DNA of 64,000 nt from Cepaea nemoralis (lineage: Eukaryota; Mollusca; Gastropoda; Stylommatophora; Helicidae). The translations under genes and the position numbers were made by a program. Below the pieces are notes generated by a model. That model worked only from the letters and a program-made list of their open reading frames with translations. It was not told the origin of the DNA and did no database searches. The stretch's first letter is position 1; every line of letters starts with the position of its first letter. Below, piece by piece: positions 10,301 to 58,166 of the stretch. The stretch spans positions 186,001 to 250,000 of the forward strand of contig JACEFZ010013234.1 of assembly GCA_014155875.1 (NCBI GenBank). The letters run 5' to 3'.

Positions 10301-13300
10301 TACACAATTTCACATTTAATCCCATTGAACAATATTCAAACATTTCAATGTTAGCGATAAGTGGTAAGATTTAAAAAAAAAAATAATAATCAGGTGTCAT
10401 GAAAGAATCCATATTGACGACACCTCTGAACACTCCCAGTTTAAACAGTGCGGGGTTCTTGCCATAAGGCCAATCCCGTGAACCACAGAGAATATTCAAC
10501 ATTGAACGCTGATTGTCTGGCTGACGGTGTAATACATTTAAAATTATGGAACTTAATCTCTGACCCGTAAATTATATACCGCATATAAACAAACATTGAA
10601 ATCTGCTGTACAATCTCCAGAACAACAAATTTTTTGTTGGGTGGACATGATGATAATGTTATATGCTAAATCTCATAATTTTCCCTCAGTTGGTTACTGA
10701 GATATGGATTTTTATATGGAGGCAAACAAATGTGAATGCACTATAGTTGCGATATTGTGATTCAGGGGCGATATTTTATTTGGCAAATAAAATTCACGGT
10801 AAACAAAGACATCTGTTGGATCCATCGATTCTGACACTCGATCACTCCATCGCTGCCAGCATCCACAGATCCATAGAGTCGCGGGTTCGACCTGTGCCAC
10901 GACACAAACTGAAAACGGAAGTGATATACCACGCCAACCTACAATGATCCACAGTTTCCCCAAAAATGGCTATGTAAAGACCACTCATGCTTTCGAGTCA
11001 TTATTCATTCAAATATCATGTGAGAATAACAACGTCATCTTAGCTTCAGCAGAAAAGGATACCTTAATATTCCGGTCTCCCGCGTGACAGGTGGAGATAC
11101 TTACGACTATACTACTGAGGACACAATCATGCTTCCACAAAAATTAATAACATATTCAAACACATGTCCACGTGACATAAACATATGTCATGTGACCAAG
11201 CCAGCCGCAACTGCGAATAACACTAAGTGTTATTCATAGTGCACTTCGAATAATCACTTCGTTAAAGAAATGTAAATAATTTAAATGGTTTGATCACCTC
11301 ACAAGACTGCCCTGGTATAATATAATCATCTACCACAAAGAGCCATGTTGAAGAAATAAAATGGATACAGAGCAAGGGGAAGACCACATAAAAGACGGAG
11401 TGATGGTATCAGGAACAATCATAGAGAAATAAAGACCAAACTACAAACAAAGTGAATTAGAAAGATCATACAAAAGATCCTGATATCTCCCCCAACACTT
11501 CACTCATGTAAATGGAGTAAGAGAAGACGTTGAAGATAGATACTAAATATAACCCTTCTGTCTTTCCTTCTCTTCTTCACTGCTGCAGTGGTTGGTTAAG
11601 TTGAGTCAAGAACCCACATCACAGCACTCAGGACATTCCCATACATGTTCTGTCTGTATCTGCAACAGCCAGCGAAGTCTCAGCACTGATGGTACCAATA
11701 GCAGTCTGATTGTGTCCATGTGACTTTTCCTCAGAGTTTTGAGTGTTGGCCAGATCCTCTGGTCACTTCCTGCAGCACCATTCTCTCCAAGCTGTGATGA
11801 TCTATCTGTTCATCTCCACTATACACATGATTCTTAAGGGCCCAGACCAAATCTGTTTTATGATTCAGTATCTGGATTTATAAGGAGCGTTCATTTGGAA
11901 TCCATTCGTCCAGCACCGCGTGTAATAGCATACGTTGAACATGATCATGTCATAGTCATGTGATAAGAGTCATGTGATAAGTACTGACCGATGAATAAAA
12001 GAGCAAGTGCTTATCGTCCCATGATGCATAGGTTCAGTTTCTGACCGTTGAGAAAATGGTCAGGTTGATCCAAAATTTGTCCAAAGAAACTCAAAGAGCG
12101 GTGATTCAGTTTCTTTCATTTGAAGGATGTTGACCAGTGGACATTCATCGAAGAATGCAGGCAGCGTATGGTAACAAATGTGTGTCGAAGACAACAGTGA
12201 CAAATTGGGCACGAATGTTTAGGAAAGGACGTCAGTTCATGACAGATCTTTGTCGGCCGGGTCAAGCACATATTGTTGCAACAGAAAAAACCATCGCCAA
12301 AATTGATGCAGCAGTACAGATGAACTGTTGTCGAAGCATACGTTCGCTAGTGAAAGAATTTGATGTGTCAATTGGGACAATTCAAAAGGTCGTTCGTAAG
12401 AAACTGCAATATCGGAAGGTGTGTTCACAGTGGGTACCACAGATGTTGACCAACCACCAAAAAGAAGAATGCATAGGATGGTGTTTGAACCACTTGCTGT
12501 GTTACAGAGTGGAGGGTGATGCATTTCTCTTCCGCATAGTGGCAGGTGATGAATCATGGTGTCACTACTTTGAGCTGAGCAGCAAAAGAGAGAGCATGCT
12601 ATGGAAGCATGCTGGATCACCAAAAGCTTAAAAATTCAAGTTACAGGTTTCCGCTGGTAAGGTTATGCTGAGCCCATTTTTTGACCATAAAGGGCTATTG
12701 TTGGTTCACTTTAAAGAGTCTGGTGTCAACATCAACTCTACCCACTACCTGCAAACACTACTCAAGCTGCAAAAAGCCATCAAGAATAAACAACCCGGCA
12801 TGCTTTCTCGCGGTGTGATTTTGTTGCATGATAATGCTCGTCCGCATGTCGCAAAGGTTGTGCAGGAAGCATTAGCAAGGAAGAAGTTGGAAATTCTGCA
12901 ACATCCAGCCTGTAGTCCTGATTTGTCACCATGTGATTTTCATTTGTTTGGACCTCTAAAAAAAAGCTCTCAAGGGGCAACAATTTCACACAGATGCAGA
13001 CGTAATGAACACGGTAAACACTTGGATCAGTGAGCAACCACAATCCTTTTTTGCATTCGCTGCCTACCTAAACAATGGGATGCTTGCCTGAATGCCTACG
13101 GCGACTTCTTCTGACCAACCCATGGTGCATAATTCATTCAGAATGAATGCTTTGTTTAATTCTACCACACCTGTTAATGTTTCTTTCATGCTTTTGTAAT
13201 AAAGCCAATGGAACAGGTTTTAAATGAACACCCCTAATACATTCCTCTGTACATCATAGATTTGATTACCATATAGCCTGTGTCAGTGGTTGACTAATGG

Positions 13301-16300
13301 TTCAGTATCTGGATTTGTGTTGCACTATACATCATAGATTTGTATTGCTGTGTACATCATAGATTTGTGTTGCTGTGTACATCATAGATTTGTGTTGCTC
13401 TATACATCATAGATTTGTGTTGCTCTATACATCATAGATTTGTGTTGCTCTATACATCATAGATTTGTGTTGCTCTATACATCATAGATTTGTGTTGCTC
13501 TATACATCATAGATTTGTGTTGCTCTATACATCATAGATTTGTGTTGCTCTATACATCATAGATTTGTGTTGCTCTGTACATCATAAGATTTGTGTTGCT
13601 CTATACATCATAGATTTGTGTTGCTCTGTACATCATAGATTTGTGTTGCTCTATACATCATAGATTTGTGTTGCTCTATAAATCATAGATTTGTAGTTGC
13701 TGCTAGTACATCATAGATTTGTGTTGCTGCTAGTACATCATAGATTTGTGTTGCTCTATACATCATAGATTTGTGTTGCTGTGTACATCATAGATTTGTG
13801 TTGCTCTGTACATCATAGATTTGTGTTGCTGTATACATCATAGATTTGTGTTGCTCTATACATCATAGATTTGTGTTGCTGTGTACATCATAGATTTGTG
13901 TTGCTCTATACATCATAGATTTGTGTTGCTGTGTACATCATAGATTTGTGTTGCTCTATACATCATAGATTTGTGTTGCTCTATACATCATAGATTTGTG
14001 TTTCTGTGTACATCATAGATTTGTGTTGCTGTGTACATCATAGATTTGTGTTGCTGTGTACATCATAGATTTGTGTTGCTCTATACATCATAGATTTGTG
14101 TTGCTCTATACATCATAGATTTGTGTTGCTCTATACATTATAGATTTCTGTTGCTCTATACATCATAGATTTGTGTTGCTCTATACATCATAGATTTGTG
14201 TTGCTCTATACATCATAGATTTCTGTTGCTCTATAAATCATAGATTTGTGTTGCTCTATACATCATAGATTTGTGTGCTCTATAATACATCATAGATTTG
14301 TGGTTGCTCTATACATCATAGATTTGTTGTTGCTCGATACCATCATAGATTTGTGTTGCTCTATACATCATAGATTGGTGTTGCTCTATACATCATAGAT
14401 TTGTGTTGCTCTATACATCATAGATTTGTGTTGCTGTGTACATCATAGATTTGTGTTGCTCTATACATCATAGATTTCTGTTGCTCTATACATCATAGAT
14501 TTGTGTTTGTCAGGGTCTTAAACTTGGCTCGCTCACCTAACAGTGTGAAACAGTACAAATACAACGTGATTTAACATAAGACTCAACGACACACCGTTCG
14601 ATGGATTTATTCACATTAAATACGGAACGATGTTCACAACAAGATATATACTGGATGTTTCAATATACACTTACACAATACAGCTCACAACGTCTCACTC
14701 TCAAGATGTCCAGACATTCGACTTTCAGCACAGATACCACACAACGCCTTTCTCTCTTCACACGTCTGTCCGAGTCGAAGTCCCCCAAGCCATCTGCCGC
14801 TAACTCGCAACTCGCCTCTCACCTCAGGTGACGTCACGAGGCATGCGTGCGTTTAGCGTCGTCCTGGCTTGACCACTGGCCGCTTGTCAGCCAGCAGTCT
14901 TGCAGGCCGGTAATCACTATCCGCTGGCGGCGTAACGAAGTTACGGCTTCCCTTCTGGGAGCTAAGTCGCCTGGCGGGCATACGCTGTCACTGCATCTCG
15001 TTCCTCCTTCCGGACTCTGACACGCTCCCCGGCCCCCCCGGCAACTTCATGAAAGATGTCATCTTCATGTCTCATATATACATAATGGGTTAATATTTAA
15101 ACCATTGTCAGAGTCTAACCCTTTTGTTGTTATTTACACATGCAAATAAATACACATATGCATAGAAATATATAAGAAATGTACATTGCAATCAACGACA
15201 TGTGGTGTTTCAACCTTTAACACTTGTCAGGTTTTCATCCTCTTGATGGCTGACTACCTCAATTGCATTTGCGACCCGTCAGATCAGTATACCAGCTTCA
15301 CGCATCTACCTCGCAGCAATTTGAAAAAAATAATAATATGGTTCTTGAAACAAAAACCATCTAGCCAGACTGAATATACGACTTTTATAAGTCGTATAAA
15401 ACGCTCAAGCCCTGCCCTTATTTGGTCAGTATCTCTCGTGTTGGTCTGCAACGTTGGGCACCCTTTGCCATGCTCATTAGATGTCTACCTGTAGTGTTGA
15501 CATCTGGCAACATCTTGTCTATTTATACGCAACACATTAATGGATACATTTTCAAATTATGGCCCTTTGTGTAGGGATGTAATAACACACAAATGAAAGG
15601 GAAATAATTTTAACATTCATGAAATACAATAATTTACAATAATTCTATTATTTCTTAGCGTCATTGCTTGACGTTTCTTCATATTAACGAGAAAAAGTCG
15701 GTAATATGAATACATAAATCAAGATATGATTCTAAGATTACACTACATAAATAATAACACACAATTCGTGTATTACATTTTATGATTTCATAAACATTTT
15801 AGAATCGTCTAAGTGTATGAACTTTATTTGTAGTCTGCTACTTTTACTCTAAATTTCCTAACTAATCCGGAAGTACACACGAACATTAACTCAGCTGATG
15901 TAGAAGCTTACAGAATCACACTTGTTCCGGTTTGATGTAGTTACGGAAGTACCTTTCTTACAGTTCATGTTTTAGATGTGTTCACAAAACCATTCTGGAT
16001 TACGATCGACTGTTCATTTGTTTCAGCTACGAACATTATGGATTTCGGTTAACTGCAATGGAGTAGCTGTCACTGTTCAGTTTACGCGTTCGCACACGTC
16101 ATAAAATATCCCTGGAATTATCCACTGCAGAATGTCCACTGGTACATTGGGTGTTCGCTTAAGGTAAGTTTTTGAGCGAATGTGACACTGTTGTTGGTGG
16201 TAATATATACAATTAATAAGTTCGCTTTCTTCTACCACACACTACACATTATACAGGCCAATCACTACATGAATTGTAAAATAAGAATACTATTTATAAT

Positions 16301-19300
16301 GGGGGTAACCCCTATCCACATCACCTTATAGACACTGCACACTTTTGGTGAATGAAAACAATTATTCACTTCAATAATGGCTGTGTCGCCTGAGTGTATT
16401 TGTGACACACTAGCACTCAACATTTGGCTTACTACTGGGTCGGTCGGACAACGGGACAAAAGATCGGCAATCGAATTGGGTTTCGTCCTGGAATATTGTC
16501 GAACTTCAAAGCTATAATCCTGAAGTTTCAAAGACCAGCGTCTACCATATGATTTGAGGGTATTCCTGAATTTATAAAGCGCAAATCGGGCTGCTGTCAG
16601 ACCCATCCACGATGAAGTGCCGTCCTAGAAAATCTGGATAATTGGTTATCACACCACTAAAGCTAGGGCTCCAATTGAGGAATGGACCCAAGCCCGTTCT
16701 CTGCTGGCTTTTAGTTTTCTGGATACGAAGTACACTGGGGTGTAGTATATTATTTTACTCTTGTCACAACTGCCTCCAATCGCCACGGAGCTAGCATCTG
16801 TACGCAATCTGAAAGGTAACGAAGTTGGTCATTTCAGGATAAGATGTTGACACTATTATGAGAAAAACACGCAAGTACTTTATCAAATGCAATTTTTAGG
16901 CTTCATTGTGTACAATTTTCTCCGTTTTTTCTTTTGTTAGTAAATTAGTAAACACTTCGTCAGTTCGGAAAACTAGGGAATGAAACTGCCGGTAGTAATT
17001 TATCAATTCCCAAAGACTTCTGACTTGTTTTTCCTTAGTAGTCGGACGTGATAGTTTGTAAAGAATTTTGGACACAATTTTATCGTCTGTCATGACAAAG
17101 CCCGTTGGATATTTTGTACCCCAGAAAGTTATTTCCTGGTAGGCTTATGTCTACTTTCGCAGGCTTTACAGTCAGTCCGTGCTGTCTAATACGTTCAAAT
17201 GTCTGTCCTAACGTCTTAATGTGCTCTTTCATCGTCTCTGTGTGAACACAGATGTCGTCGATATAGCAGATTATATTAGGAATGTCTACAAGAAGAAGTC
17301 GTGTCATACGAACGAAGGTGGCGGGGGCATTAACAAGCCCAAATGGAAGTTTGCACCATTTCGTACAGTCCCCACGGTGTGGCAAATGCTGTCTAATGTC
17401 TGCTCTTGTTCGTCTACTTCTATCTGATAATATCCTTTAGTCATATCTAACGTCGAAAAGAACCTAGCGTCTGTCAGTTCTGTCAGAAGATCGTCAGTGT
17501 TTGCCATTGGCTCCAAATCAAGAACAGTAATTTTATTTAGCTTCCTATGTCGATGCACAGTCTTATTGTATTGTCCTTTTCCGTATTATCACATTGGCGA
17601 TGAGAAGTCTGACTGGGATCGTCTGATGATGTTGTTTTTCTCTAAGTTGATTATTTCTTGGTGCAAATGTTCTTTGTAGTGTAATGGGATGGTGTATGGT
17701 CTGCATCTTATGGGTGTGTTTGATGTGAGTGTGATGTGATGCTGTACTAATTCTGTTTGTCCTGGGTTGTTGGAAAAGATGGTGTTGTACTGCTGTATAA
17801 GCTGTTTGCAACTGTTTTGTCTCTGCTTGAGATAACTTTGGATTGATTTTGATATCCTTCAAGCAGCTCGTCGTGTCTAATAATGCAGGCGTTGGAATCT
17901 CGTCACTGGCATCGTCGTCTTCGTGATCTATTATCACTGTACACGCTGTTGTATCGTCTTGTTCGTTGTCTCTGTTGTGGTATGGTCTTAGCTATTTATG
18001 TGATATATTTTATGTTTGTCTTTTATGAGGATTTCGTAGTCTACAGGTGAAATCTGTCTCGTCACTTTGAAGGGTCCCTGCCAAGAATCAGTCAATAAGT
18101 GTCTGTCACTAGGTAGTAGAAGAAGAACGTCCTGTCCAGGTGTCACCGTTATTGTCCTGTTACCTTTGTCAGCATACTGTCTATAAGTAGCACCCGATAG
18201 GTTTTAGTGCATTCTTCGCAATAATACATGATTTGATGATTCTTTCACGCAGTGATGTAACAGATACGTATGATGATATGGGTTTAAAGTACTGGAGTAG
18301 AGTCAGTTACATTTGGTGATAAATGGTCAATGGGCCGCGTGGTTTGGCACCATAGATAAGTTCAAAAGGAGAGAACCGGTACTAAGCATGTGGTACCTCG
18401 CGATAAGCAAAAGAATAGCTGGTAGATATAAATCCCAGTTATTGGGGTGCTCTTGCGTTCACTTTTGCCAGCATGTGCTTTAGATCCCCGTTAAATTTTT
18501 TCAATTACTCCGCTACTGTGAGGATGGTACGGGAATTGAAACATTGTTTCACTCCCAACATTTTGGTGAAAGCCTGAGTAGATGCGGCAATAAACTGAGT
18601 GCCCTCTATCAGATTGGATAGTATCTGGAAAACCCATCCTAGAAAAAATATGGAAGAAGACTTCCATTATGTCATTGGCAGTTATGTTCTTTAGCGGAAT
18701 AGCTTCCGGCCAGCGACTACATTGATCAATGACAGTTTAGAATAAATTTATTCCCTCTAGTAGTTGTATGATTGAGAGGGCCCACTATGTCAACCGATAG
18801 TTTTTCAAAAGGTCGACTGGCTAAGTCAGGTGACTTGTAACTTTGCCTGTGGGTGTTTACCTTTTTTTACCAGTTTCTGGCAGGTGTCACAACTTCTGCA
18901 ATATGCTTTAATGTCATTGCAAAATTTGGGCCAATGAAACTGTGTCAATAATCTGGATCTGGTCTTAACGTATGCCATGTGCCCTGCAAGAGGTATATCG
19001 TGGGCAAGATGTAAGGCTTACTTGCGATAACTTGTTGGCAAAACAGTTTTGCTCTGTGGTGTTGTCACTTTGGTGTAATACCTGGTGAGTATATTATTTT
19101 TCATAGCAAAATGCCATTTTGCATTCTTGGTTACCTTTGGCTTTTGGCCGATCAGATTAAAGTATTTTGACAATGAAGGATCAGCTTTTTGTGCTGTTAC
19201 AAATGTTTCCTTCATAGTGTTTGTAGGTAGTGTTACTGTGCTGAGTGATTGTATAGCCTCAGTTTGCTTACTTTCATCTTGCACTCTAGCAGTAGCTCTA

Positions 19301-22300
19301 GTTACTGTGTTCACACATTCGATGATATCAGATGATGATGGAACAATGTTATCAATGATGTCATGAGAACTTAGTGCTCCATTAGCTACCATACAATCAA
19401 TAGGTGGTGTGACATTTTCAATGATGACATTTGATGTTGATGGTATGTTATCATCCATACATGGAGATGTTATGTCATGAGGTTTATCATTCACCTCAGG
19501 TAAATTTCCAATAATTACATCACACACTGGGTTTGTTAATACAGCGCACTTTACTTTCCCAGTGAGGAAAGGTGTTTCAATGTATGCCCATGCTAATGGG
19601 TATTTCTCAATATTGCCTGAGAATGTTCTGCATGTTACGTGCCTGCCTGTATAGTCTGTAGGCGTTATGAATGTTCTTTTCAGACCAATGAGTGAACTGC
19701 CTGTATCACGAAGGACTGTAGCAGGCATATCCGTGATGGATGTTTATTCTGCCTTTTGAATCTACTACCAAATTAGCTTCTTCATTGGCAATAGGGATGG
19801 CATGACCGCATGTTAAAATACCATCTTCAAAAAAGTGTTACAAACAGAGCATTTGTTTGCGCTGAATATGTCAAAAGCCTGTGCTGAGTTCACAGGATGT
19901 TCTCTGGCTCTTCTTCTTCAGACGCCGAACTATCAACAAGGCGGCATTTGCTTTGTTGGTCATATACCTGCCCTTACACTCTTTCCGATGGTGTCCGTAC
20001 GCCTTACAGAGGAAACATTTACGCAAACTTTTGAAGGTTTTACGCTCCTTATCTGTCTGTTTACCATGTTTAGTAGGTAAGTATGATAACCAGGGTTTTT
20101 ATCACACATTTCAGACTGATGATGAGAATATTTACAATAATTGCAATGGTATAACTTCTCAGAAGTAGGTCTATGAGGTTTCTGCCTACTATAGGGTTTG
20201 TCATAGTTAGCCGCTGCTACAAAGTTAATATCAGTAGCTTCAGTGGCAAAGCAATGTTTGTTGGCTGTGTAGTACGCCGAACCACGTCTTTCAATCTCAT
20301 CCACACTAGTGCATTCGTTCTCTAACAAAAATTTAGAAAATGCTGAAGGAATCGATGATACAATTTTGTCTCTAATGATTAGATCTTCTAATCTCTGATA
20401 GTTCTTGTCAATTTTAGCTGCTGAAGTCCATTTGGTGAATATATCTCGGACTAAGCAGAGGTAATCAGAGAACGTTTGAGTCGGTTTTGGGCTCAACTTA
20501 CTGAATTGTTCTCTGTAACCTGCCTCATCTAACATAAATGTGCCATAATCTTAGATTTCAGATAATGGTAATCTTTTCTGAGGTCTTTGGGGATGGTTTC
20601 AATTACTTTAAGAGGTTCCCCTGACAAACTCCTCATGTACACAATATTCCATTCAGACAGTGGAACTTGATAATGTTCCATTAAAGTTTCAAAATTTTGG
20701 GTAAAAGCTGCAATGCAGTCACCCGAGGTATAGTTACGTACAATACCTTGATATTTCTTGTACTGGTTTTCTTTCTCCAGTCTTTCAGATTTCTTAGACT
20801 CTTTGTTAATGGCAGTCTCAGTGTCAAGTTGTTTCATCTTCAACTGTAACTCCAGTTCTTCTCTCTTACTCTGAGCTGTTATTTCTGCCTTCTTTAGCTC
20901 ACTATCTATCTCAGCTTGCTTTGTCTTTGCAGCCATTTCTGCCTGCTTTAATGCTCTTTCAGCCGCTCTTTCATCGCGTTCATTAGCTTTCTCCTGTACT
21001 AGTAGGTATTCAGAGTACTTCTGCTCACTCCACTGTGTTAATTCATCACCATGTAACTGTAATTTTATCCCCATATCAATGAAATCAAATAATGAAGACA
21101 TGATGGACAATGTCAATGAAATACCAGCCACACAAAATATGTTATAAGTGGTTAGTAAAGAACAATTTACAATTGATTTCTATTGACGATGCTGTGCCTA
21201 AAATTGCATAGTTAAAGTATGTGAAAAGCAAAAATATACTCAAGTGCCCTGGATGCGTGAAGAATGGTTGGAAATCGGGCTAGGAACTGTAGGGTCGTTA
21301 CTTCAAAACCACGAATGACCTCTACGGCAGGGTTTCGGATGGTACGGAAAAACCTGCTTTATTTTTGGAGAGAATAAGTTAATGTCTATTTGTTGGTGTG
21401 TGCCTGCTTGTCACTAAGTATTGATTAGGTTTGTATGGCGTTGAGTGTAGTTGTAGGTCGTAAATTTGTCTGTCAACAATTTTTTTTTTCAAAACAAGTT
21501 ACTTTCTTTCCAAACACTTTTCGCGTTCCACAACTCAATGCACAAAGACAATCTACACTTATGTTAACACTTTACAACATTGATGATACATCACTTACAT
21601 CAAGATAACATTCAGTAAGGACATAGACATCAAGTTTACAAGATGGCGACAAGGTCAAAATGGCGACAAGATCACAATGTCGACAAGGTCAAAACGGTGA
21701 CAAGTTTCACAAACCACAAATGTTTGACACGGATTACAAAATCAAACAATATGTATGCATTGTACGTTTACAAATAGTCTTACACATGTTTCAACAATGT
21801 AGTTAATAATGAAAATGAGCCTTCCACGATCACATTTACATGTACTATAAAGTTTGACAAAAATTTCACGTTTACAAACTCTAGTTTTAAATCGTTAATC
21901 ACTAAAACACGTTCATATCAATGCCGGACGAAAGCCCCCACGTCCACACATGTCAGGGTCTTAAACTTGGCTCGCTCACCTAACAGTGTGAAACAGTACA
22001 AATACAACGTGATTTAACGTAAGACTCAACGACACACCCAGTTCGATGGATTTATTCACATTAAATACGGAACGATGTTCACAACAAGATATATACTGGA
22101 TGTTTCAATATACACTTACACAATACAGCTCACAACGTCTCACTCTCAAGATGTCCAGACATTCGACTTTCAGCACAGATACCACACAACGCCTTTCTCT
22201 CTTCACACGTCTGTCCGAGTCGAAGTCCCCCAAGCCGTCTGCCGCTAACTCGCAACTCGCCTCTCACCTCAGGTGACGTCACGAGGCATGCGTGCGTTTA

Positions 22301-25300
22301 GCGTCGTCCTGGCTTGACCACTGGTCGCTTGTCAGCCAGCAGTCTTGCAGGCCGGTAATCACTATCCGCCTGGCGGCGTAACGAAGTTACGGCGTCCCTT
22401 CTGGGAGCTAAGTCGCCTGGCGGGCGTAACGATGTCACTGCATCTCTGTCTCCTTTCCGGACTCTGACAGTGTTGCTCTATACATCATAGATTTGTGTTG
22501 CTCTATACATCATAGATTTGTGTTGCTCTATACATCATAGATTTGTGTTGCTGTGTACATCATAGATTTGTGTTGCTGTGTACATCATAGATTTGTGTTG
22601 CTCTATACATCATAGATTTCTGTTGCTCTATACATCATAGATTTGTGTTGCTCTATACATCATAGATTTGTGTTGCTCTATACATCATAGATTTGTGTTG
22701 CTCTGTACATCATAGATTTGTGTTGCTCTATACATCATAGATTTGTGTTGCTCTATACATCATAGATTTCTGTTGCTCTATACATCATAGATTTGTGTTG
22801 CTGTGTACATCATAGATTTGTGTTGCTGTGTACATCATAGATTTGTGTTGCTCTATACATCATAGATTTGTGTTGCTCTATACATCATAGATTTGTGTTG
22901 CTCTATACATCATAGATTTGTGTTGTTCTATACATCATAGATTTGTGTTGCTCTGTACATCATAGATTTGTGTTGCTCTATACATCATAGATTTGTGTTG
23001 CTGTGTAATCATAGATTTGTGTTGCTCTATACATCATAGACTTGTGTTGCTCTATACATCATAGATTTGTGTTGCTCTATACATCATAGATTTGTGTTGT
23101 TCTATACATCATAGATTTGTGTTGCTCTGTACATAATAGATTTGTGTTGCTCTATACATCATAGATTTGTGTTGTTCTATACATCATAGATTTGTGTTGC
23201 TCTGTACATAATAGATTTGTGTTGCTCTATACATCATAGATTTGTGTTGTTCTATACATCATAGATTTGTGTTGCTCTGTACATCATAGATTTGTGTTGC
23301 TCTATACATCATAGATTTGTGTTGCTGTGTAATCATAGATTTGTGTTGCTCTATACATCATAGACTTGTGTTGCTCTATACATCATAGATTTGTGTTGCT
23401 CTATACATCATAGATTTGTGTTGCTCTATACATCATAGATTTGTGTTGCTCTATACATCATAGATTTGTGTTGCTCTATACATCATAGATTTGATGACCA
23501 TATAGCTTGTGTCAGTGGTTGAATGTTCCCATAACTTTATGTTTCAGGATCACGATCGAGAAGGATTCCAAAGTTCCCAACGCAGCCATTTTTACAGTCA
23601 ACAAGGAGGACCACACTTTGGGAAACCTGATTACCACGTGAGTTTGAGTTGTTTAGATACTGGATTAAGTATCCAGTTCTCTTCACTACTGCACATTTTA
23701 ACTGTTGTATAGTTCTTTTTTAATCTGCAATGTCCAGTGTATGGTTTCGTTGACTTCAACACGCCTTGTGTGAAACTGTCTTGAAGGAGTTGACAGATGC
23801 TATTTACCATATTGCCTGTTGGAGGTACAGAGTGCGTTCACGTGGCTTGATGGCTTCTTAGAGAACAAGTATATCTTGGATGTTCTGGACAGGTATGAGG
23901 GGCAATGAACAGGCTGGTAGACTGGCTGCTGCCGCTCCTCCAGGAAGATATCTTGAAAGTAGCTAACTCACAGGGAGAACTGATCACTTGCATAAGAAGA
24001 AGGCATCCACATTTACTGGGCATGTTATGAGAAGAGGAAAGTTGGTGTGTATTGTCACAGCAATAAAATTGGAGGGTGGAGAGGCATGGGAAGACCAAGA
24101 GAGAAGATCCTTGGCATTTTGACATTATGGCATGTAGGAATATCAGTATCAGAAATGATTGGCAGTACACAAAACAGAAGGCTGCGGACAGACATAATCA
24201 CCAACGCCATGCGGCATGGACTATAAGAAGATTGGCAGTACACGAGACAGAAGGCTGCGGACAGACATTATCACCAACGCCACACGGCATGACTATAAGA
24301 AGATTGGCAGTACACGAGACAGAAGGCTGCGGACAGACATGATCACCAATGCCACACGGCATGAACTATAAGAAGATTGGCAGTACATGAGACAGAAGGC
24401 TGTGGACAGACATGATCACCAATGCCACACGGCATGGACTATAAGAAGATTGGCAGTACACGAGACAGAAGGCTGCGGACAGACATGATCACCAACGCCA
24501 CACGGCATGGACTATAAGAAGATTGGCAGTACACGAGACAGAAGGCTGCGGACAGACATGATCACCAACACCACACGGCATGGACTATAAGAAGATTGGC
24601 AGTACACGAGACAGAAGGCTGCGGACAGACATGATCACCAACGCCACACGGCATGGAACTATAAGAAGATTGGCAGTACATGAGACAGAAGGCTGCGGAC
24701 AGACATGATCACCAACGCCACACGGCATGGACTATAAGAAGAAGTGATTATATATTGGTAGTAGAAAACACGTAGAAATGGAGGTCAAGGACATTGAACT
24801 AACAAGGACATAGGACTAACTAACAAGGACACAGGACTTATATGTTGTTGAAGACAGCATAACATTGTGATTGATTGGAGCACTGATTGTGTAAGTCTTA
24901 GATCCCATGTTTTCACACAAGTTTGATTGGAGCACTGATTGTGTCAGTTTTAAAATCCCATGTTTTCACACACATTCTTGGTTGCCAATCTTGGGGTCAC
25001 AGCTAGATCAAACTAAACATAATGAGCCAGGCCCTTATTTCTCAGCCCTTTTCTTTTTCTCAGGAGCCAGAATATATTTTTGCAGATTCAGACTGTGACA
25101 ACAATTGAAAACTGGTGCCAGGTCAGGATGTCTTGGTGCCATGGTGACCAGGCTCCTGGATGCCTGCCTCCCCAGCCTGGGGATATCCCAGCCGTGTGAA
25201 ATATCTAACCTAACAGCATGAAATACCTCATCATCATCATCATCATCATCAAGTGCCTTGCCAGCTGGCGTGGGCGACCATGCTTCTCCACAAATTGCGA

Positions 25301-46504: not shown

Positions 46505-47870
46505 TAGTTAGTTAGTTAGTCGACAGATCATCCTCGTTGCACATCGAACCATTCAGTCCATAAGTGCTCGGATCCCCTCCTCAGCAAATCCCGCAGCGTG
46601 TAGCGGCTAACGACGCCAGTTCTGTGTTGGTTTATCAATCTTCTTTGGCTTCCTGCGTAGTGTTCTTGTTTGGCACGTGTATGGAGTAAGTCCATAAGTG
46701 CTCGGATCCCCTCCTCAGCAAATCCCGCAGCGTGTAGCGGCTAACGACGCCAGTTCTGTGTTGGTTTATCAATCTTCTTTGGCTTCCTGCGTAGTGTTCT
46801 TGTTTGGCCACCCCTCTTTTAATTTGCTGCTCCCGCAGTCTGGCCATTGTTGTAGATTCACAGTCATCACTTGGTTCTCGCAAAAGTCTCACTTCTCGTA
46901 GAGCATTCAGAATGTCAGCCTGGTCCATGGCGCGTCCGCCCTCCACAGTAGCCTCACCTGCGAGCTTGTCAGCCCGCTCATTTCCTTGTACTCCCGCATG
47001 ACCTGGCACGAAGATGAAACTAATCTTTGCCAGCCGAGACCGCTTCAGAGGCAGCAACCATTCTCTTCGGATCGACCCCTCCTCTATCCTCTTGATTATG
47101 TTCATTGAGTCGCTAAGGAAACAAGCCCTAGTGAAAGTCTGTGTCTCGAGCCATGTTATTGCTTTACTTACTGCCATGACTTCCATGGTCAGGCTACTTG
47201 TGGTTTCAGTGAAAGCACCAGAGTCCTCCTTCACAATTCTCCCTCCGGCCCGAGCTGTAAAGGCCCATGAGCTTCTCACATGTCGGACGACCGACCCATC
47301 TGCGTAGATGACCGCGTCACCGTCTAGCGAATTCTCGAAAATCAACGCTTGTACTTCAGCCTCAACAGCAGCCGGATTTTCTTGTCTGCATTTTCTATCT
47401 AGTTGGATGCAAACTGAAAAGGATGTGCAGAAGTCTGTTGGCACTTGCACCCACTCCTTGCCAGGTTCTAAGTCCTCAGGTGAACACACCTGTTGAAGAA
47501 TGTCTTCGGCTTGACCCATCCACGACCGTCCTCTTTTTAACCTGCTGCCCTTCACCTTCCTAATTTCACTATGCAGTGGATGTTGTGTGTTTGCGTTAAT
47601 TCTGAGGTAGGCGCGTGCCCTGCAAACTTGCATTCTCTCTTCAATGGTTGGAAAATCAAGAAGGTAGCGCATCGCCCTGCATGCTGTATCTTTTGTACAT
47701 CCAAGAATAATGTGCATAGCTTCATTCTGTATCCTTTCCATCCTTTCTATCTGCTTATGGCTGAGAGTCAGGGATTGCCATTGCATACTCCAAAACAGAC
47801 ATGACCAGCCCCTCGTACAGAAGACAATCAACTCTTCAGTGGCAACAGTGAGTAGAGATACCTTCAGATG
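46505..47870 (-). mobile_element. RNase H LINE family A, 5'-truncated
   Basis: Minus-oriented copy ending GTCGACTAACTAACTAAC (46505-46522), a (CTAA)n tail. Carries a 134-bp tandem duplication of its own 3' region (46555-46688 and 46689-46815). Almost identical to 55368-56121 over the shared part. Confidence 0.85.
46635..47850 (-). pseudogene. LINE family A ORF2 C-terminus with RNase H
   Basis: Open for about 400 codons. First the post-RT region (LSHKQIERMERIQNEAMHII and RGRSWMGQAEDIL), then RNase H: AVIYADGSVV (Asp 1), TMEVMAVSKAI (Glu), ACFLSDSMN (Asp 2), FVPGHAGVQGNERADKLAGE (His and last Asp). All catalytic positions are present. The C-terminal LINQHRTGVVSRYTL region follows. The RT palm and endonuclease are missing (5' truncation), and the extreme C-terminus is altered by the 134-bp duplication. 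In intact elements it removes RNA from the RNA-DNA hybrid. RNase H at this place is typical of I-superfamily LINEs. Confidence 0.88.
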
Positions 47871-47919
47871 ACTGCTGCATGGGAGGGTAGGAGGACGGAG
47901 CAAGCATGGGGATACCCGA

Positions 47920-48010
47920 TGTGCAGGAATGTCGATAGTGATAACATAACCTAACATAACATAGCATAACCTATCCTAACCTAACCTTACCCCCCCCCCC
48001 CCCCCCCCAC
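47920..48010. repeat. (ATAAC)n tract and 19-C run
   Basis: ATAACATAACCTAAC repeats preceded by AATGTCGATAGTG, as at 7110-7165, then C at 47990-48008. Confidence 0.7.
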
Positions 48011-52129: not shown

Positions 52130-55100
52130 GTCTGTCCCACTGGTGTATAGAAGAGAAGACATACCAGGTAAATTCCACGTTATATGGAAGAGATGGTCTG
52201 TCCCACAACTTGTTGAATAAAATAGATGGACTGTCCCACAACTTGTTGAATAAAATAGATGGTCTGTCCCACCACTTGTTGTATAAAATAGATTGTCTGT
52301 CCCACAACTTGTTGTATAAAATAGATGGTCTGTCCCACAACTTGTTGGAGTAGAGATAGCATGTCCCACAACTTGTTGTATAAAATAGATGGTCTGTCCC
52401 ACAACTTGTTGTATAAAATAGATGGTCTGTCCCACAACTTGGTGTATAAAATAGATGGTCTGTCCCACAACTTGTTGTATAAAATAGATGGTCTGTCCAA
52501 CAGCGTGTTGTATAAAATAGATGGTCTGTCCCACAACTTGTTGTTTAAAATAGATGGTCTGTCCCAAAATTTGTTGTATAAAATAGATGGTCTGTCCAAC
52601 AACTTGTTGGAGTAGAGATGGCATGTCCCACAACGAGTTGTATAAAATAGATGGTCTGTCCCACAACTTGGTGTATAAAATAGATGGCCTGTACAACAAC
52701 TTGTTGTATAAAATAGATACTCTGTCCCACAACTTGTTGTATAAAATAGATGGTCTGTCCCACAACTTGGTGTATAAAATAGATGGTCTGTCCCACAACG
52801 TGTTGTATAAAATAGATGGTCTGTCCCACAACTTGGTGTATAAAATAGATGGTCTGTCCCACAACTTGGTGTATAAAATAGATGGTCTGTCTCACAACGT
52901 GTTGTATAAAATAGGTGGTCTGTCCCACAACGTGTAGTATAAAATAGATGGTCTGTCTCACAACGTGTTGTATAAAATAGATGGTGTGTCCCACAACTTG
53001 TTGTATAAAATAGATTGTCTGTCCCACAACTCGGTGTATAAAATAGATGGTCTGTCTCACAACGTGTATAAAATAGTTGGTATGTCCCACAACGTATTGT
53101 ATGAAATAGATTGTCTGTCCCACAACTTGTTGTATAAAATAGATGGTCTGTCCAACAACTCGGTGTATAAAATAGATGGTCTGTCTCACAACGTGTTGTA
53201 TAAAATAGATGGTCTGTCCCACAACGTGTTGTATAAAATAGATGGTCTGTCTCACAACGTGTTGTATAAAATAGATGGTCGGTCCCACAACTTTTTGTAT
53301 AAAATAGATGGTCTGTCCCACAACTTGTTGTTTAAAATAGATGGTCTGTCCCACAACTTGTTGGAGTAGAGATGGCATGTCCAACAACTTGGTGTATAAA
53401 ATAGATGGTCTGTCCCACAACGTGTTGTATAAAATAGATGGTCTGTCCCACAACTTGTATAAAATAGATTGTCTGTCCCACAACTCCGTGTATAAAATAG
53501 ATGGTCTGTCTCACAACGTGTTGTATAAAATAGATGGTCTGTCCCACAACTTGGTGTATAAAATAGATGGTCTGTCCCACAACTTGTTGTATAAAATATA
53601 TGGTCTGTCCAACAGCGTGTTGTATAAAATAGATGGTCTGTCCCACAACTTGTTGGAGTAGAGATGGCATGTCCAACAACTTGGTGTATAGAATAGACGG
53701 TCTGTCCCACAACTTGTTGTATAAAATAGATGGTCTATCCGTCAACGTGTTGTATAAAATAGATGATCTGTCCAACAACTTGGTGTATAAAATAGATGGT
53801 GTGTCCCACAACTTGTTGGAGTAGAGATGGCATGTCCCACAACTTGGTGTATAAAATAGATGACATGTCCCACATCGTGGTGTATAAAATAGATGGCATG
53901 TCCCACAACTTGGTGTATAAAATAGATGGCATGTCCCACAACTTGGTGTACAAAATAGACGGTCTGTCCCACAACTTGTTGGAGTAGAGATGGCATGTCC
54001 CACAACTTGGTGTATAAAATAGATTGTCTGTCACACAACGTGTTGTATAAAATAGATTGTCTGTCCCACAACGGGGTTGTGTAAAATAGATGGTCTGTCC
54101 CACAACTTGGTGTATAAAATAGATGGTCTGTCCAACAACTTGTTGGAGTAGAGATGGCATGTCCCACATTTCGTTGTATAAAATAGATGGCATGTCCCAC
54201 AACGTGGTGTATAAAATAGATGGCATGTCCCACAACTCGGTGTATAAAATAGAAGGCATGTCCCACAACGTGGTGTATAAAATAGATGGCATGTCCCACA
54301 ACTCAGTGTATAAAATAGATGGCATGTCCCACAACGTGGTGTATAAAATAGATGGTCTGTCCCACAACTTGTTGGAGTAGAGATGGCATGTCCCACAACT
54401 TCTTGTATAAAATAGATGGTCTGTCCCACAACGTGTTGTATAAAATAGATGGTCTGTCCCACAACGTGTTGTATAAAATAGATGCTCTGTCCCACAAAGT
54501 GTTGTATAAAATAGATGGTCTGTCCAACAACTTGGTGTATAAAATAGATGGTCTGTCCCACAACTTGTTGGAATAGAGATGGTATGTCCCACAACTTGGT
54601 GTATAAAATAGATGGTCTGTCCAACAACTTGGTGTATAAAATAGATGGTCTGTCCCACAACTTGGTGTATAAAATAGATGGCATGTCCCACAACTTGGTG
54701 TATAAAATAGATGGTCTGTCCCACAACGTGTTGTATAAAACAGATGGTGTGTCCCACAACGTGTTGTATATAATAGATGGTCTGTCCCACAACGTGTTGT
54801 TTAAAATAGATGGTCTGTCCCACAACGTGTTGTATAAAATAGATGGTCTGTCCAAAAACTCGGTGTATAAAATAGATGGCATGTCCCACAACTTGGTGTA
54901 TAAAATAGTTGGTCAGTCCAACAACGTGTTGTATTAAATAGATGGCGTGTCCCACAACATTTTGTATAAAATAGATGGCATGTCCCACAACTTGGTGTAT
55001 AAAATAGATGGTCTGTCCCACAACGTGTTGTATAAAATAGATGGTCTGTCCAACAACTTGGTGTATAAAATAGATGGTCTGTCCACAACTTGTTGTATAA

Positions 55101-58100
55101 AATAGATGGTCTGTCCAACTTGGTGTATAAAATAGATGGTCTGTCCCACAACGTGTTGTATAAAATAGATGGTCTGTCCCACAACTTGTTGTATAAAATC
55201 GATGGTTTGTCCCACAACGTGTTGTATAAAATAGATGGTCTGTCCCACAACTTGTTGTATAAAATAGATGGTCTGTCCCACAACGTAGTGTATAAAATAG
55301 ATGGTCTGTCCCACAACTTGTTGTATGAAATAGATGGTCTGTCCAACAACTTGGTGTATAAAATAGATGGTTAGTTAGTTAGTTAGTTAGTCGACAGATC
55401 ATCCTCATTGCACATTGAACCATTCAGTCCATAAGTGCTCAGATCCCCTCCTCAGCAAATCCCGCAACGTGTAGCGGCTAACGACGCCAGTTCTGTGTTG
55501 GTTTATCAATCTTCTTTGGCTTCCTGCGTAGTGTTCTTGTTTGGCCACCCCTCTTTTAATTTGCTGCTCTCGCAGTCTGGCCATGGTTGTAGATTCACAG
55601 TCATCACTTGGTTCTCGCAAAAGTCTTACTTCTCGTAGAGCATTCAGAATGTCGGCCTGGTCCATGGCGCGTCCGCCCTCCACAGTAGCCTCACCTGCGA
55701 GCTTGTCAGCCCGCTCATTTCCTTGTACTCCCGCATGCCCTGGCACGAAGATGAAACTAATCTTTACCAGTCGAGACCGCTCCAGAGGCAGCAACCATTC
55801 TCTTCGGATCGACCCCTCCTCTATCCTCTTGATCATGTTCATTGAGTCGCTAAGGAAACAAGCCCTAGTGAAAGTCTGTGTCTCGAGCCATGTTATTGCT
55901 TTACTTACTGCCATGACTTCCATGGTCAGGCTACTTGTGGTTTCAGTGAAAGCACCAGAGTCCTCCTTCACAATTCTCCCTCCGGCCCGAGCTGTAAAGG
56001 CCCATGAGCTTCTCACATGTCGGACGACCGACCCATCTGTGTAGATGACCGCGTCACCGTCTATCGAATTCTCGAAAATCAACGCTTGTACTTCAGCCTC
56101 AACAGCAGCCGGATTTTTCTTGTCTGTCCCACAACGTGTTGTATAAAATAGATGGTCTGTCCCACAACTTGTTGTATAAAATAGATGGTTTGTCCCACAA
56201 CGTGTTGTATAAAATAGATGGTCTGTCCAACAACTTGTTGTATAAAATAGATACTCTGTCCCACAACTTGTTGTATAAAATAGATGGTCTGTCCCACAAC
56301 TTGGTGTATAAAATAGATGGTCTGTCCCACAACGTGTTGGAGTAGAGATGGCATGTCCCACAACTTGGTGTATAAAATAGATGGTCTGTCCAACAACTTG
56401 GTTTATAAAATAGATGGTCTGTCCCACAACTTGGTGTATAAAATAGATGGCATGTCCCACAACTTGGTGTATAAAATAGATGGTCTGTCCAACAACGTGA
56501 TTGTATAAAATAGATGGTGTGTCCCACAACGTGTTGTATATAATAGATGGTCTGTCCCACAACGTGTTGTATAATATAGATGGTCTGTCCCACAACGTGT
56601 TGTATAAAATAGATGGTCTGTCCAACAACTTGGTGTATAAAATAGATGGTCTGTCCCACAACGTGTTGTATAAAATAGATGGTCTGTCCAACAACTCGGT
56701 GTATAAAATAGATGGTCTGTCCAACAACGTGTTGTATTAAATCGATGGCATGTTCCACAACTTTTTGTATAAAATAGATGGCATGTCCCACAACTTGGTG
56801 TATAAAATAGATGGTCTGTCCAACAACGTGTTGTATAAAATAGATGGTCTGTCCAACAACTTGTTGTATAAAATAGATGGTCTGTCCCACAACGTGTTGT
56901 ATAAAATAGATGGTATGTCCCACAACTTGATGTATAAAATAGATGGTTTGTCCAACAACTTGGTGTATAAAATAGATGGTCTGTCCAACAACTTGGTGTA
57001 TAAAATAGATGGTCTGTCCCACAACTTGTTGTATAAAATAGATGATCTGTCCAACAACTTGGTGTATAAAATAGATGGTCTGTCCCACAACGTGTTGTAT
57101 AAAATAGATGGTCTGTCCCACAACTTGTTGTATAAAATAGATGGTTTGTCCCACAACGTGTTGTATAAAATAGATGGTCTGTACAACAACTTGTTGTATA
57201 AAATAGATACTCTGTCCCATAACTTGTTGTATAAAATAGATGGTCTGTCCCACACCTTTTTGTATAAAATAGATGGTCTGTCCCACAACGTGGTGTATAA
57301 AATAGATGGTCTGTCCCACAACTTGTTGTATAAAATAGATGGCCTGTCCCACACCTTGTTGTATAAAATAGATGGAATGTCCCACAACGTGGTGTATAAA
57401 ATAGATGGTCTGTCCCACAACTTGTTGTATAAAATAGATGGTCTGTCCCACAACGTGGTGTATAAAATATAGATGGAATGTCCCACAACGTGGTGTATAA
57501 AATAGACGGTCTGTCCCACAACTTGTTGTATAAAATAGATGGTCTGTCCAACAACGTGTTGTGTAAAATAGATGGTCTGTCCCACAACTTGGTGTATAAA
57601 TTAGATGGTCTGTCCAACAACTTGGTGTATAAATTAGATGGTCTGTTCAACAACTTGGTGTATAAATTAGATGGTCTATCCAACAACGTGTTGTATAAAA
57701 TAAATGGTTTGTCCCACAACTTGTTGGAGTAGAGATGGCATGTCCCACAACTTGGTGTATAAAATAGATGGCATGTCCCACAACGTGGTGTATAAAATAG
57801 ATGGTCTGTACAACAAGCTTGTTGTATAAAATAGATACTCTGTCCCACAACTTGTTGTGTAAAATAGATGGTCTGTCCCACACCTTTTTGTATAAAATAG
57901 ATGGTCTGTCCCACAACGTGGTGTATAAAATAGATGGCATGTCCCACAACGTGGTGTATAAAATAGATGGTTTGTCCCACAACTTGTTGGAGTAGAAATG
58001 GCATGTCCCACAACTTGGTGTATAAAATAGATGGTCTGTCCAACAACGTGTTGTATAAAATAGATGGTCTGTCCCACAACTTGTTGTATAAATTAGATTG

Positions 58101-58166
58101 TCTGTCCCACAACTTGTTGTATAAAATAGATGGTCTGTCCCACAACTTGTTGTATAGAAGAGATGG
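52130..58166. repeat. 33-bp minisatellite with 31-bp variant units
   Basis: About 160 units of ACAACTTGTTGTATAAAATA+GATGGTCTGTCCC. About a dozen 31-bp variants (ACAACTTGTTGGAGTAGAGA+TGGCATGTCCC) are scattered at spacings near multiples of the unit. The minus strand of the unit has no stop triplet in any frame, giving frames up to 580 codons. Interrupted at 55368-56121 by LINE A. Confidence 0.95.
55368..56121 (-). pseudogene. LINE family A RNase H fragment inside the 33-bp array
   Basis: Contains AVIYTDGSVV, TMEVMAVSKAI, CFLSDSMNM and FVPGHAGVQGNERADKLAGE, all RNase H catalytic positions, ending GSEHLWTEWFNVQ and stop, then about 20 bp and (CTAA)n. 5' truncated exactly where the copy at 47395 continues (KNPAAVEAEVQALIFE). 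The array reads AGATGG on the left and TCTGTCCC on the right, i.e. it is joined with no visible duplication. Confidence 0.9.

What the first reader, a model, noticed from the sequence alone, without database searches (positions are those of the whole stretch)
14508..22469. Gmr1-type Ty3/gypsy element: integrase lies before reverse transcriptase
Seen: on the minus strand the order is gag (two CCHC knuckles), DTGSS protease, HHCC plus D,D35E integrase, YIDD reverse transcriptase, RNase H ending ADLLSR, and no second integrase before the 3' LTR. Known: this copia-like order with gypsy-type enzymes defines the Gmr1 group, first described from fish and other deuterostomes. A copy in a probable lophotrochozoan would extend its range.
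Basis: partly seen in the sequence, partly recalled or inferred. Interest (0 to 1): 0.85.

Follow-up and report, generated by a model that had tools for sequence, protein, structure and literature searches.

The report
Jumping gene with integrase before polymerase
A broken retrovirus-like jumping gene, probably in a mollusc genome, carries its integrase ahead of its DNA-copying enzyme, an uncommon arrangement that marks a known group called Gmr1.

Summary
Window 14508-22469 (minus strand) is one LTR retrotransposon: LTRs of 515/519 bp, 98.8% identical over aligned bases, and a 5-bp target duplication in phase within a 25-bp satellite, so it inserted as one unit. Pfam matches run integrase zinc domain, integrase core, integrase C-terminus, reverse transcriptase, RNase H; protease is read by motif only. 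No second integrase was found after RNase H (15 of 15 pieces). Enzymes are Ty3/gypsy-type. Two ordinary gypsy contigs do not show this order. Gmr1-type is the best label by structure; phylogeny could not be tested and the SCAN-like gag test was inconclusive. The range claim is partly outdated: Gmr1 relatives are published from crustaceans (2013) and an annelid (2021). A 2018 mollusc survey lists no Gmr1 clade, so a mollusc copy would be a modest extension, but the host is only inferred (the two relatives with an organism name are gastropod). The host genome search did not complete, so other copies are untested. New member of a known kind.

The parts
14508..15022 (-). 3' LTR (515 bp)
   Evidence: matches 21951-22469, 507 identical / 6 mismatches / 8 gap columns
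21951..22469 (-). 5' LTR (519 bp)
14503..14507 (.). target-site duplication, left copy
   Evidence: flanks; array phase: left flank ends at unit position 9, right flank begins at unit position 5 (counted from 0), so 5 bp overlap
22470..22474 (.). target-site duplication, right copy
13312..14507 (.). 25-bp tandem array, left part of the target
   Evidence: 47.4 copies
22470..23493 (.). 25-bp tandem array, right part of the target
   Evidence: 41.0 copies
21921..21940 (-). candidate primer binding site: complement of a tRNA-Pro 3' end with a 2-nt insertion and one mismatch, 10 nt after the 5' LTR
   Evidence: 0 of 5000 mononucleotide shuffles of the 60 nt reach the score; the tRNA letters were recalled and chosen after seeing the likeness
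19871..21179 (-). gag region in three frame pieces: coiled-coil-like N-terminal part, capsid-like part, two CX2CX4HX4C knuckles
   Evidence: zf-CCHC E 0.012 for the second knuckle; the rest by eye
19018..19743 (-). one 241-aa open piece with protease motif DTGSS and, downstream, the stretch that precedes the integrase zinc domain
   Evidence: read by eye; no Pfam protease match; no PDB match
18826..19017 (-). integrase H2C2 zinc domain
   Evidence: Pfam PF17921 E 6e-16; Ty3-G Gag-Pol 7q5b E 0.0072 is its only PDB match
18491..18866 (-). integrase catalytic core: first D in 18866-18729, second D and E 35 residues apart in 18736-18491
   Evidence: Pfam rve E 9.2e-6, below cutoff; PDB integrases from E 0.0018, Ty3-G 7q5b E 0.01; motifs
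17988..18203 (-). integrase C-terminal domain with GPF motif
   Evidence: Pfam PF22938 E 3.2e-6; motif by eye; no related PDB match
17563..17991 (-). 142-aa open piece that runs from the integrase tail into the start of the reverse transcriptase region
   Evidence: assignment by eye, no related PDB match and no homologue among 2 candidates
17080..17585 (-). reverse transcriptase core with YIDD
   Evidence: Pfam RVT_1 E 0.0018 (below cutoff) and 8.8e-17; Ty3-G Gag-Pol 7q5b E 5e-12
16265..16828 (-). RNase H, ending in ADLLSR
   Evidence: Pfam RT_RNaseH E 1.5e-5 for 16828-16652; the rest by eye
15023..15039 (-). candidate polypurine tract (14 of 17 purines) next to the 3' LTR
   Evidence: sequence; by eye

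Best explanation
It is a Gmr1-type Ty3/gypsy LTR retrotransposon, probably in a mollusc, that retrotransposed as one unit into a 25-bp satellite and is now broken. Shown here: two LTRs, a 5-bp target duplication, gypsy-type integrase domains before reverse transcriptase and RNase H, nothing recognisable after RNase H. Inferred: its RNA was packaged by its Gag, primed by tRNA-Pro, copied by its reverse transcriptase and inserted by an integrase released from the middle of the polyprotein, as in other LTR elements; the changed order changes where the protease cuts, not the cycle.
For: LTR pair and identity; target duplication in array phase; domain matches in order; families PF17921, RVT_1 and RT_RNaseH, with no RVT_2 or copia integrase family among the Pfam matches of the pieces scanned; RT piece matches Ty3-G Gag-Pol in the PDB at E 5e-12; single open pieces across the protease-integrase and integrase-RT joints; two ordinary gypsy contigs do not show the order in the same Pfam test.
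Against: No phylogenetic placement: only 4 RT relatives came back, none with a clade label, and there was no known Gmr1 element at hand as a positive control. The SCAN domain, which a frog study found in over half of its Gmr elements and in no other type (PMC4131045, passages), was not matched in gag at E up to 10; the gag model was unusable (mean pLDDT 32). The one search with the integrase-RT joint found none of 2 candidates, and four viral-contig scans with RT or zinc-domain queries confirmed no relative. At 7.96 kb it is longer than the four Gmr elements of Tetraodontiformes (6.06-6.47 kb).
Confidence: 0.8

Rival explanations
1. An ordinary gypsy element was rearranged, or two elements recombined, so the order is a one-off accident of this copy (before or at insertion).
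For: Only one copy was seen: blastn found no second copy of the internal region in the window, and the genome search gave no answer.
Against: LTRs 98.8% identical, 5-bp duplication in satellite phase, and single open pieces bridging both joints; no integrase left after RNase H in 15 of 15 pieces. A recombinant formed before insertion could still show the first two of these.
Confidence: 0.08
2. A gypsy lineage outside Gmr1 (for example one of the MolGy clades of molluscs) that gained the integrase-first order independently.
For: A mollusc survey whose gypsy tree holds 989 mollusc sequences (RT/RNase H) lists 21 clades and no Gmr1; the text seen does not report domain order per clade. SCAN was not matched in gag.
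Against: Parsimony: in the papers seen Gmr1 is the one gypsy clade named as having this order. No tree was made that separates this element from Gmr1 or joins it to Gmr1.
Confidence: 0.12

Closest known systems
Gmr1 clade of Ty3/gypsy (Gmr1 of Atlantic cod; Goodwin and Poulter 2002, seen only as a citation)
   Same: Gypsy-type enzymes in the order protease, integrase, reverse transcriptase, RNase H (order as stated in PMC2582038, passage); LTR length within or close to the 337-518 bp of four Tetraodontiform Gmr elements
   Different: Longer (7.96 kb against 6.06-6.47 kb), broken reading frames, no SCAN match in gag, host not a deuterostome if the host inference is right; clade position untested
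Gmr1-like elements of crustaceans (GyRex4, Gychoro2, GyMaja1, GyLiva4; PMC3587641)
   Same: Protostome host; RT related to the Gmr1 clade by their tree
   Different: In the shrimp the RT stretch (GyRex4) and the integrase stretch (GyRex5) do not overlap, so the order was not read directly in the passages seen
LGF3 of the annelid Lamellibrachia luymesi (PMC8220671)
   Same: Lophotrochozoan host, placed in Gmr1 by RT, RNase H and integrase trees
   Different: Annelid; its sequences were not at hand for comparison
Ordinary Ty3/gypsy elements (contigs L001 and L002)
   Same: Enzyme families
   Different: L002: integrase after RNase H; L001: protease followed by RT with no integrase between, its end is cut off

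Membership tests
Gmr1 clade (Ty3/gypsy) | Integrase lies before reverse transcriptase in pol | tested here: met
   Pfam matches in order
Gmr1 clade (Ty3/gypsy) | Enzymes of Ty3/gypsy type (RVT_1, H2C2 integrase), not copia type | tested here: met
   PDB matches of the RT piece: 8 sequences, among them Ty3-G Gag-Pol 7q5b at E 5e-12
Gmr1 clade (Ty3/gypsy) | RT and integrase group with Gmr1 elements in trees | not testable with these tools
   no labelled Gmr1 sequence could be fetched; 4 RT relatives only
Gmr1 clade (Ty3/gypsy) | SCAN-like capsid in gag (reported in over half of frog Gmr elements, PMC4131045; not strictly defining) | tested here: inconclusive
   no SCAN match at E up to 10, no PDB match, model pLDDT 32
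LTR retrotransposon | Paired LTRs with TG..CA ends and a short target duplication | tested here: met
Ty1/copia | Copia-type reverse transcriptase (RVT_2) | tested here: not met
   RVT_1 matched and RVT_2 did not in the pieces scanned
Ordinary Ty3/gypsy order | Integrase after RNase H | tested here: not met
   no match in 15 of 15 pieces between RNase H and the 3' LTR

The most novel reading that the evidence does not exclude
Molluscs carry an integrase-first gypsy lineage that the large mollusc survey missed or hid among clades named from RT/RNase H trees alone; either Gmr1 is an ancient bilaterian clade or the order arose more than once.
Probability: 0.3. Interest if true: 0.5.

Novelty: new member of a known kind. 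Interest (0 to 1): 0.35.

Why it matters
Integrase-first gypsy elements show that pol domain order can change without loss of mobility, and Gmr1-like gag is the reported source of the vertebrate SCAN domain (PMC3424704, PMC4592553, passages). A copy in a mollusc would help decide whether the clade is an old bilaterian one and would offer an outgroup for the SCAN capsid. The satellite target gives an unusually clean sign that such an element inserts as one unit.

Tried and rejected
Relatives: the RT piece found 4 proteins of 7 candidates at E up to 1e-5, P0001 to P0004, 40-47% identical to the window piece in alignment; the integrase-RT joint found none of 2 candidates; four viral-contig scans confirmed none. 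One scan of prokaryote genomes confirmed 2 of 25 matched stretches, gypsy-bearing contigs L001 and L002 in bins labelled as bacterial, used only as order controls. Gag fold: single-sequence model, mean pLDDT 32, so no fold search was run. PDB searches of the RT N-terminal piece, integrase C-terminus, RNase H piece, joint piece, gag piece and protease piece gave nothing related. Window tRNAs: none by ARAGORN; Rfam at gathering cutoffs: none. A tree was considered and dropped because only four unlabelled RT fragments were at hand.

The idea that frame breaks mean great age was not adopted: the LTRs differ by 6 substitutions and 6 gap events (my count), so gaps are as frequent as substitutions, and assembly errors or fast decay after insertion could account for the breaks.

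Full report
What is there. The window holds one LTR retrotransposon on the minus strand at 14508-22469. The two LTRs are 515 and 519 bp, with 507 identical, 6 mismatched and 8 gapped columns, 98.8% identity over aligned bases (repeats also). It sits inside a tandem array of a 25-bp unit, 13312-14507 on the left and 22470-23493 on the right. In a script the left flank ends at position 9 of the unit and the right flank begins at position 5, counted from 0 (49 of 50 and 50 of 50 bases match in those phases), so five bases are duplicated. This is what one integration event leaves; a join of unrelated pieces would give an arbitrary phase, with about 1 chance in 25 of this overlap.

Signals next to the LTRs. 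Ten bases after the 5' LTR lies a stretch complementary to the 3' end of tRNA-Pro, with a 2-nt insertion and one mismatch; 0 of 5000 mononucleotide shuffles of the 60 nt reached its score. The tRNA letters were recalled, and only this tRNA was tried, after I had noticed the likeness, so the figure overstates the strength. A purine-rich tract abuts the 3' LTR.

Domain order. Reading down the minus strand, Pfam gives: zf-CCHC in 20098-19871 (E 0.012, weak), Integrase_H2C2 in 19017-18826 (6e-16), rve in 18736-18491 (9.2e-6, under the curated cutoff), Integrase_p58_C in 18203-17988 (3.2e-6), RVT_1 in 17585-17304 (0.0018, under the cutoff) and 17436-17080 (8.8e-17), RT_RNaseH in 16828-16652 (1.5e-5). 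Protease is seen only as DTGSS (no Pfam match). The other knuckle, the first catalytic D, the GPF motif and ADLLSR are read by eye. The D-to-E spacing of 35 is my count. Between RNase H and the 3' LTR, 15 of 15 minus-frame pieces of at least 25 aa matched no family. So no second integrase was found, but very short fragments would escape.

Joints. Piece 19743-19018 (241 aa) is open from the protease motif to the stretch before the integrase zinc domain, and piece 17991-17563 (142 aa) is open from the integrase tail into the region before the RT core. The RT end of the second piece is assigned by eye: PDB searches of it and of its neighbour found nothing related and the protein search of the joint found none of 2 candidates.

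Type of enzymes. RT matches RVT_1, not RVT_2. In the PDB its 8 matches begin with 4ol8, named Reverse transcriptase/ribonuclease H, E 2.7e-12 (that this is Ty3 is recalled), then Ty3-G Gag-Pol 7q5b, E 5e-12, and retrovirus-type chains from 9.6e-12, so this ranking does not separate them well. The integrase zinc domain's only match is Ty3-G Gag-Pol, E 0.0072. The integrase core has 12 matches up to E 0.1, the best an entry named Integrase at 0.0018, PFV integrase at 0.0067 and Ty3-G at 0.01. As a control, two gypsy-bearing contigs from bins labelled as bacterial gave in the same Pfam scan: L001 gag, knuckle, protease, RT, RNase H, with the frame cut off at the contig end; L002 RT, RNase H, H2C2, rve. 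Neither has integrase before RT. No known Gmr1 element was at hand as a positive control.

State of the copy. By my reading, the recognisable coding sequence is spread over 16 open pieces in all three minus frames, with stops in frame between some, so this copy cannot make a whole Pol as written (one frame change between gag and pol could be natural). Gag, protease-integrase and RT-RNase H are all affected. LTR divergence is low, and gap events between the LTRs (6 by my count) are as many as substitutions (6), so the breaks may be recent or be assembly errors.

Host. Not known. The one RT relative of 4 that carries an organism name is Plakobranchus ocellatus, and the one of 61 relatives of a LINE-type protein at 46635-47975 that does is Bradybaena similaris; both are heterobranch gastropods. 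The closest relative of the LINE-type protein, 98% identical over 81% of its length, carries no name. This favours a mollusc, weakly.

Known or new. Papers, read as passages by term unless said: the order is the mark of the Gmr1 clade (PMC6238403, PMC2582038, PMC2774666, PMC8220671). Gmr1-like elements are reported from crustaceans as the first in protostomes (PMC3587641), from the annelid Lamellibrachia luymesi as LGF3 (PMC8220671), from frogs with about 200 copies in Silurana (PMC4131045) and from Tetraodontiformes (PMC11117352). An annelid survey says that Gmr1 is present in several phyla but did not find it in its own analysis (PMC8556966). The mollusc survey (section 6 read whole) lists 21 gypsy clades in a tree with 989 mollusc sequences, and no Gmr1. 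Searches for Gmr1 with retrotransposon and integrase, alone, with mollusc, with CsRn1, Cigr or TEsorter, and for Gmr1-like or Gmr1 clade showed in their listings no paper on a mollusc Gmr1 element that I recognised; 40 of 53 papers were listed and 20 of 21; a wording without Gmr1 found nothing. The library holds openly licensed papers only.

Membership. Domain order and enzyme type are met. Phylogeny was not testable. SCAN in gag, a known but not universal mark, was inconclusive. I therefore call it Gmr1-type by structure and leave clade membership open.

Noticed in passing
13312-14507 and 22470-23493: A 25-bp satellite (about 88 copies in the two parts, 93 and 95% matches by TRF) that was the insertion target.
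   Followed up: partly
52191-58166: A 33-bp minisatellite of about 6 kb, interrupted between 55371 and 56122 by a fragment of the same LINE-type RNase H protein as at 46635-47975.
   Followed up: no
12134-13033, plus strand: Transposase fragments (Pfam Transposase_1 E 1.1e-10, DDE_3 E 1.3e-7 in 12632-13033), mariner-like by recall, just left of the satellite.
   Followed up: partly
46635-47975, minus strand: LINE-type RNase H protein with an unnamed relative 98% identical over 81% of its length (P0005), and a 134-bp tandem duplication with 100% matches at 46555-46808.
   Followed up: partly
L001 and L002: Gypsy elements on contigs binned as Carnobacterium and Actinomycetota genomes, most likely eukaryote contamination of those bins (inference).
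   Followed up: partly
21643-21712: A short imperfect direct repeat of about 36 bp in the stretch between the 5' LTR and gag.
   Followed up: no
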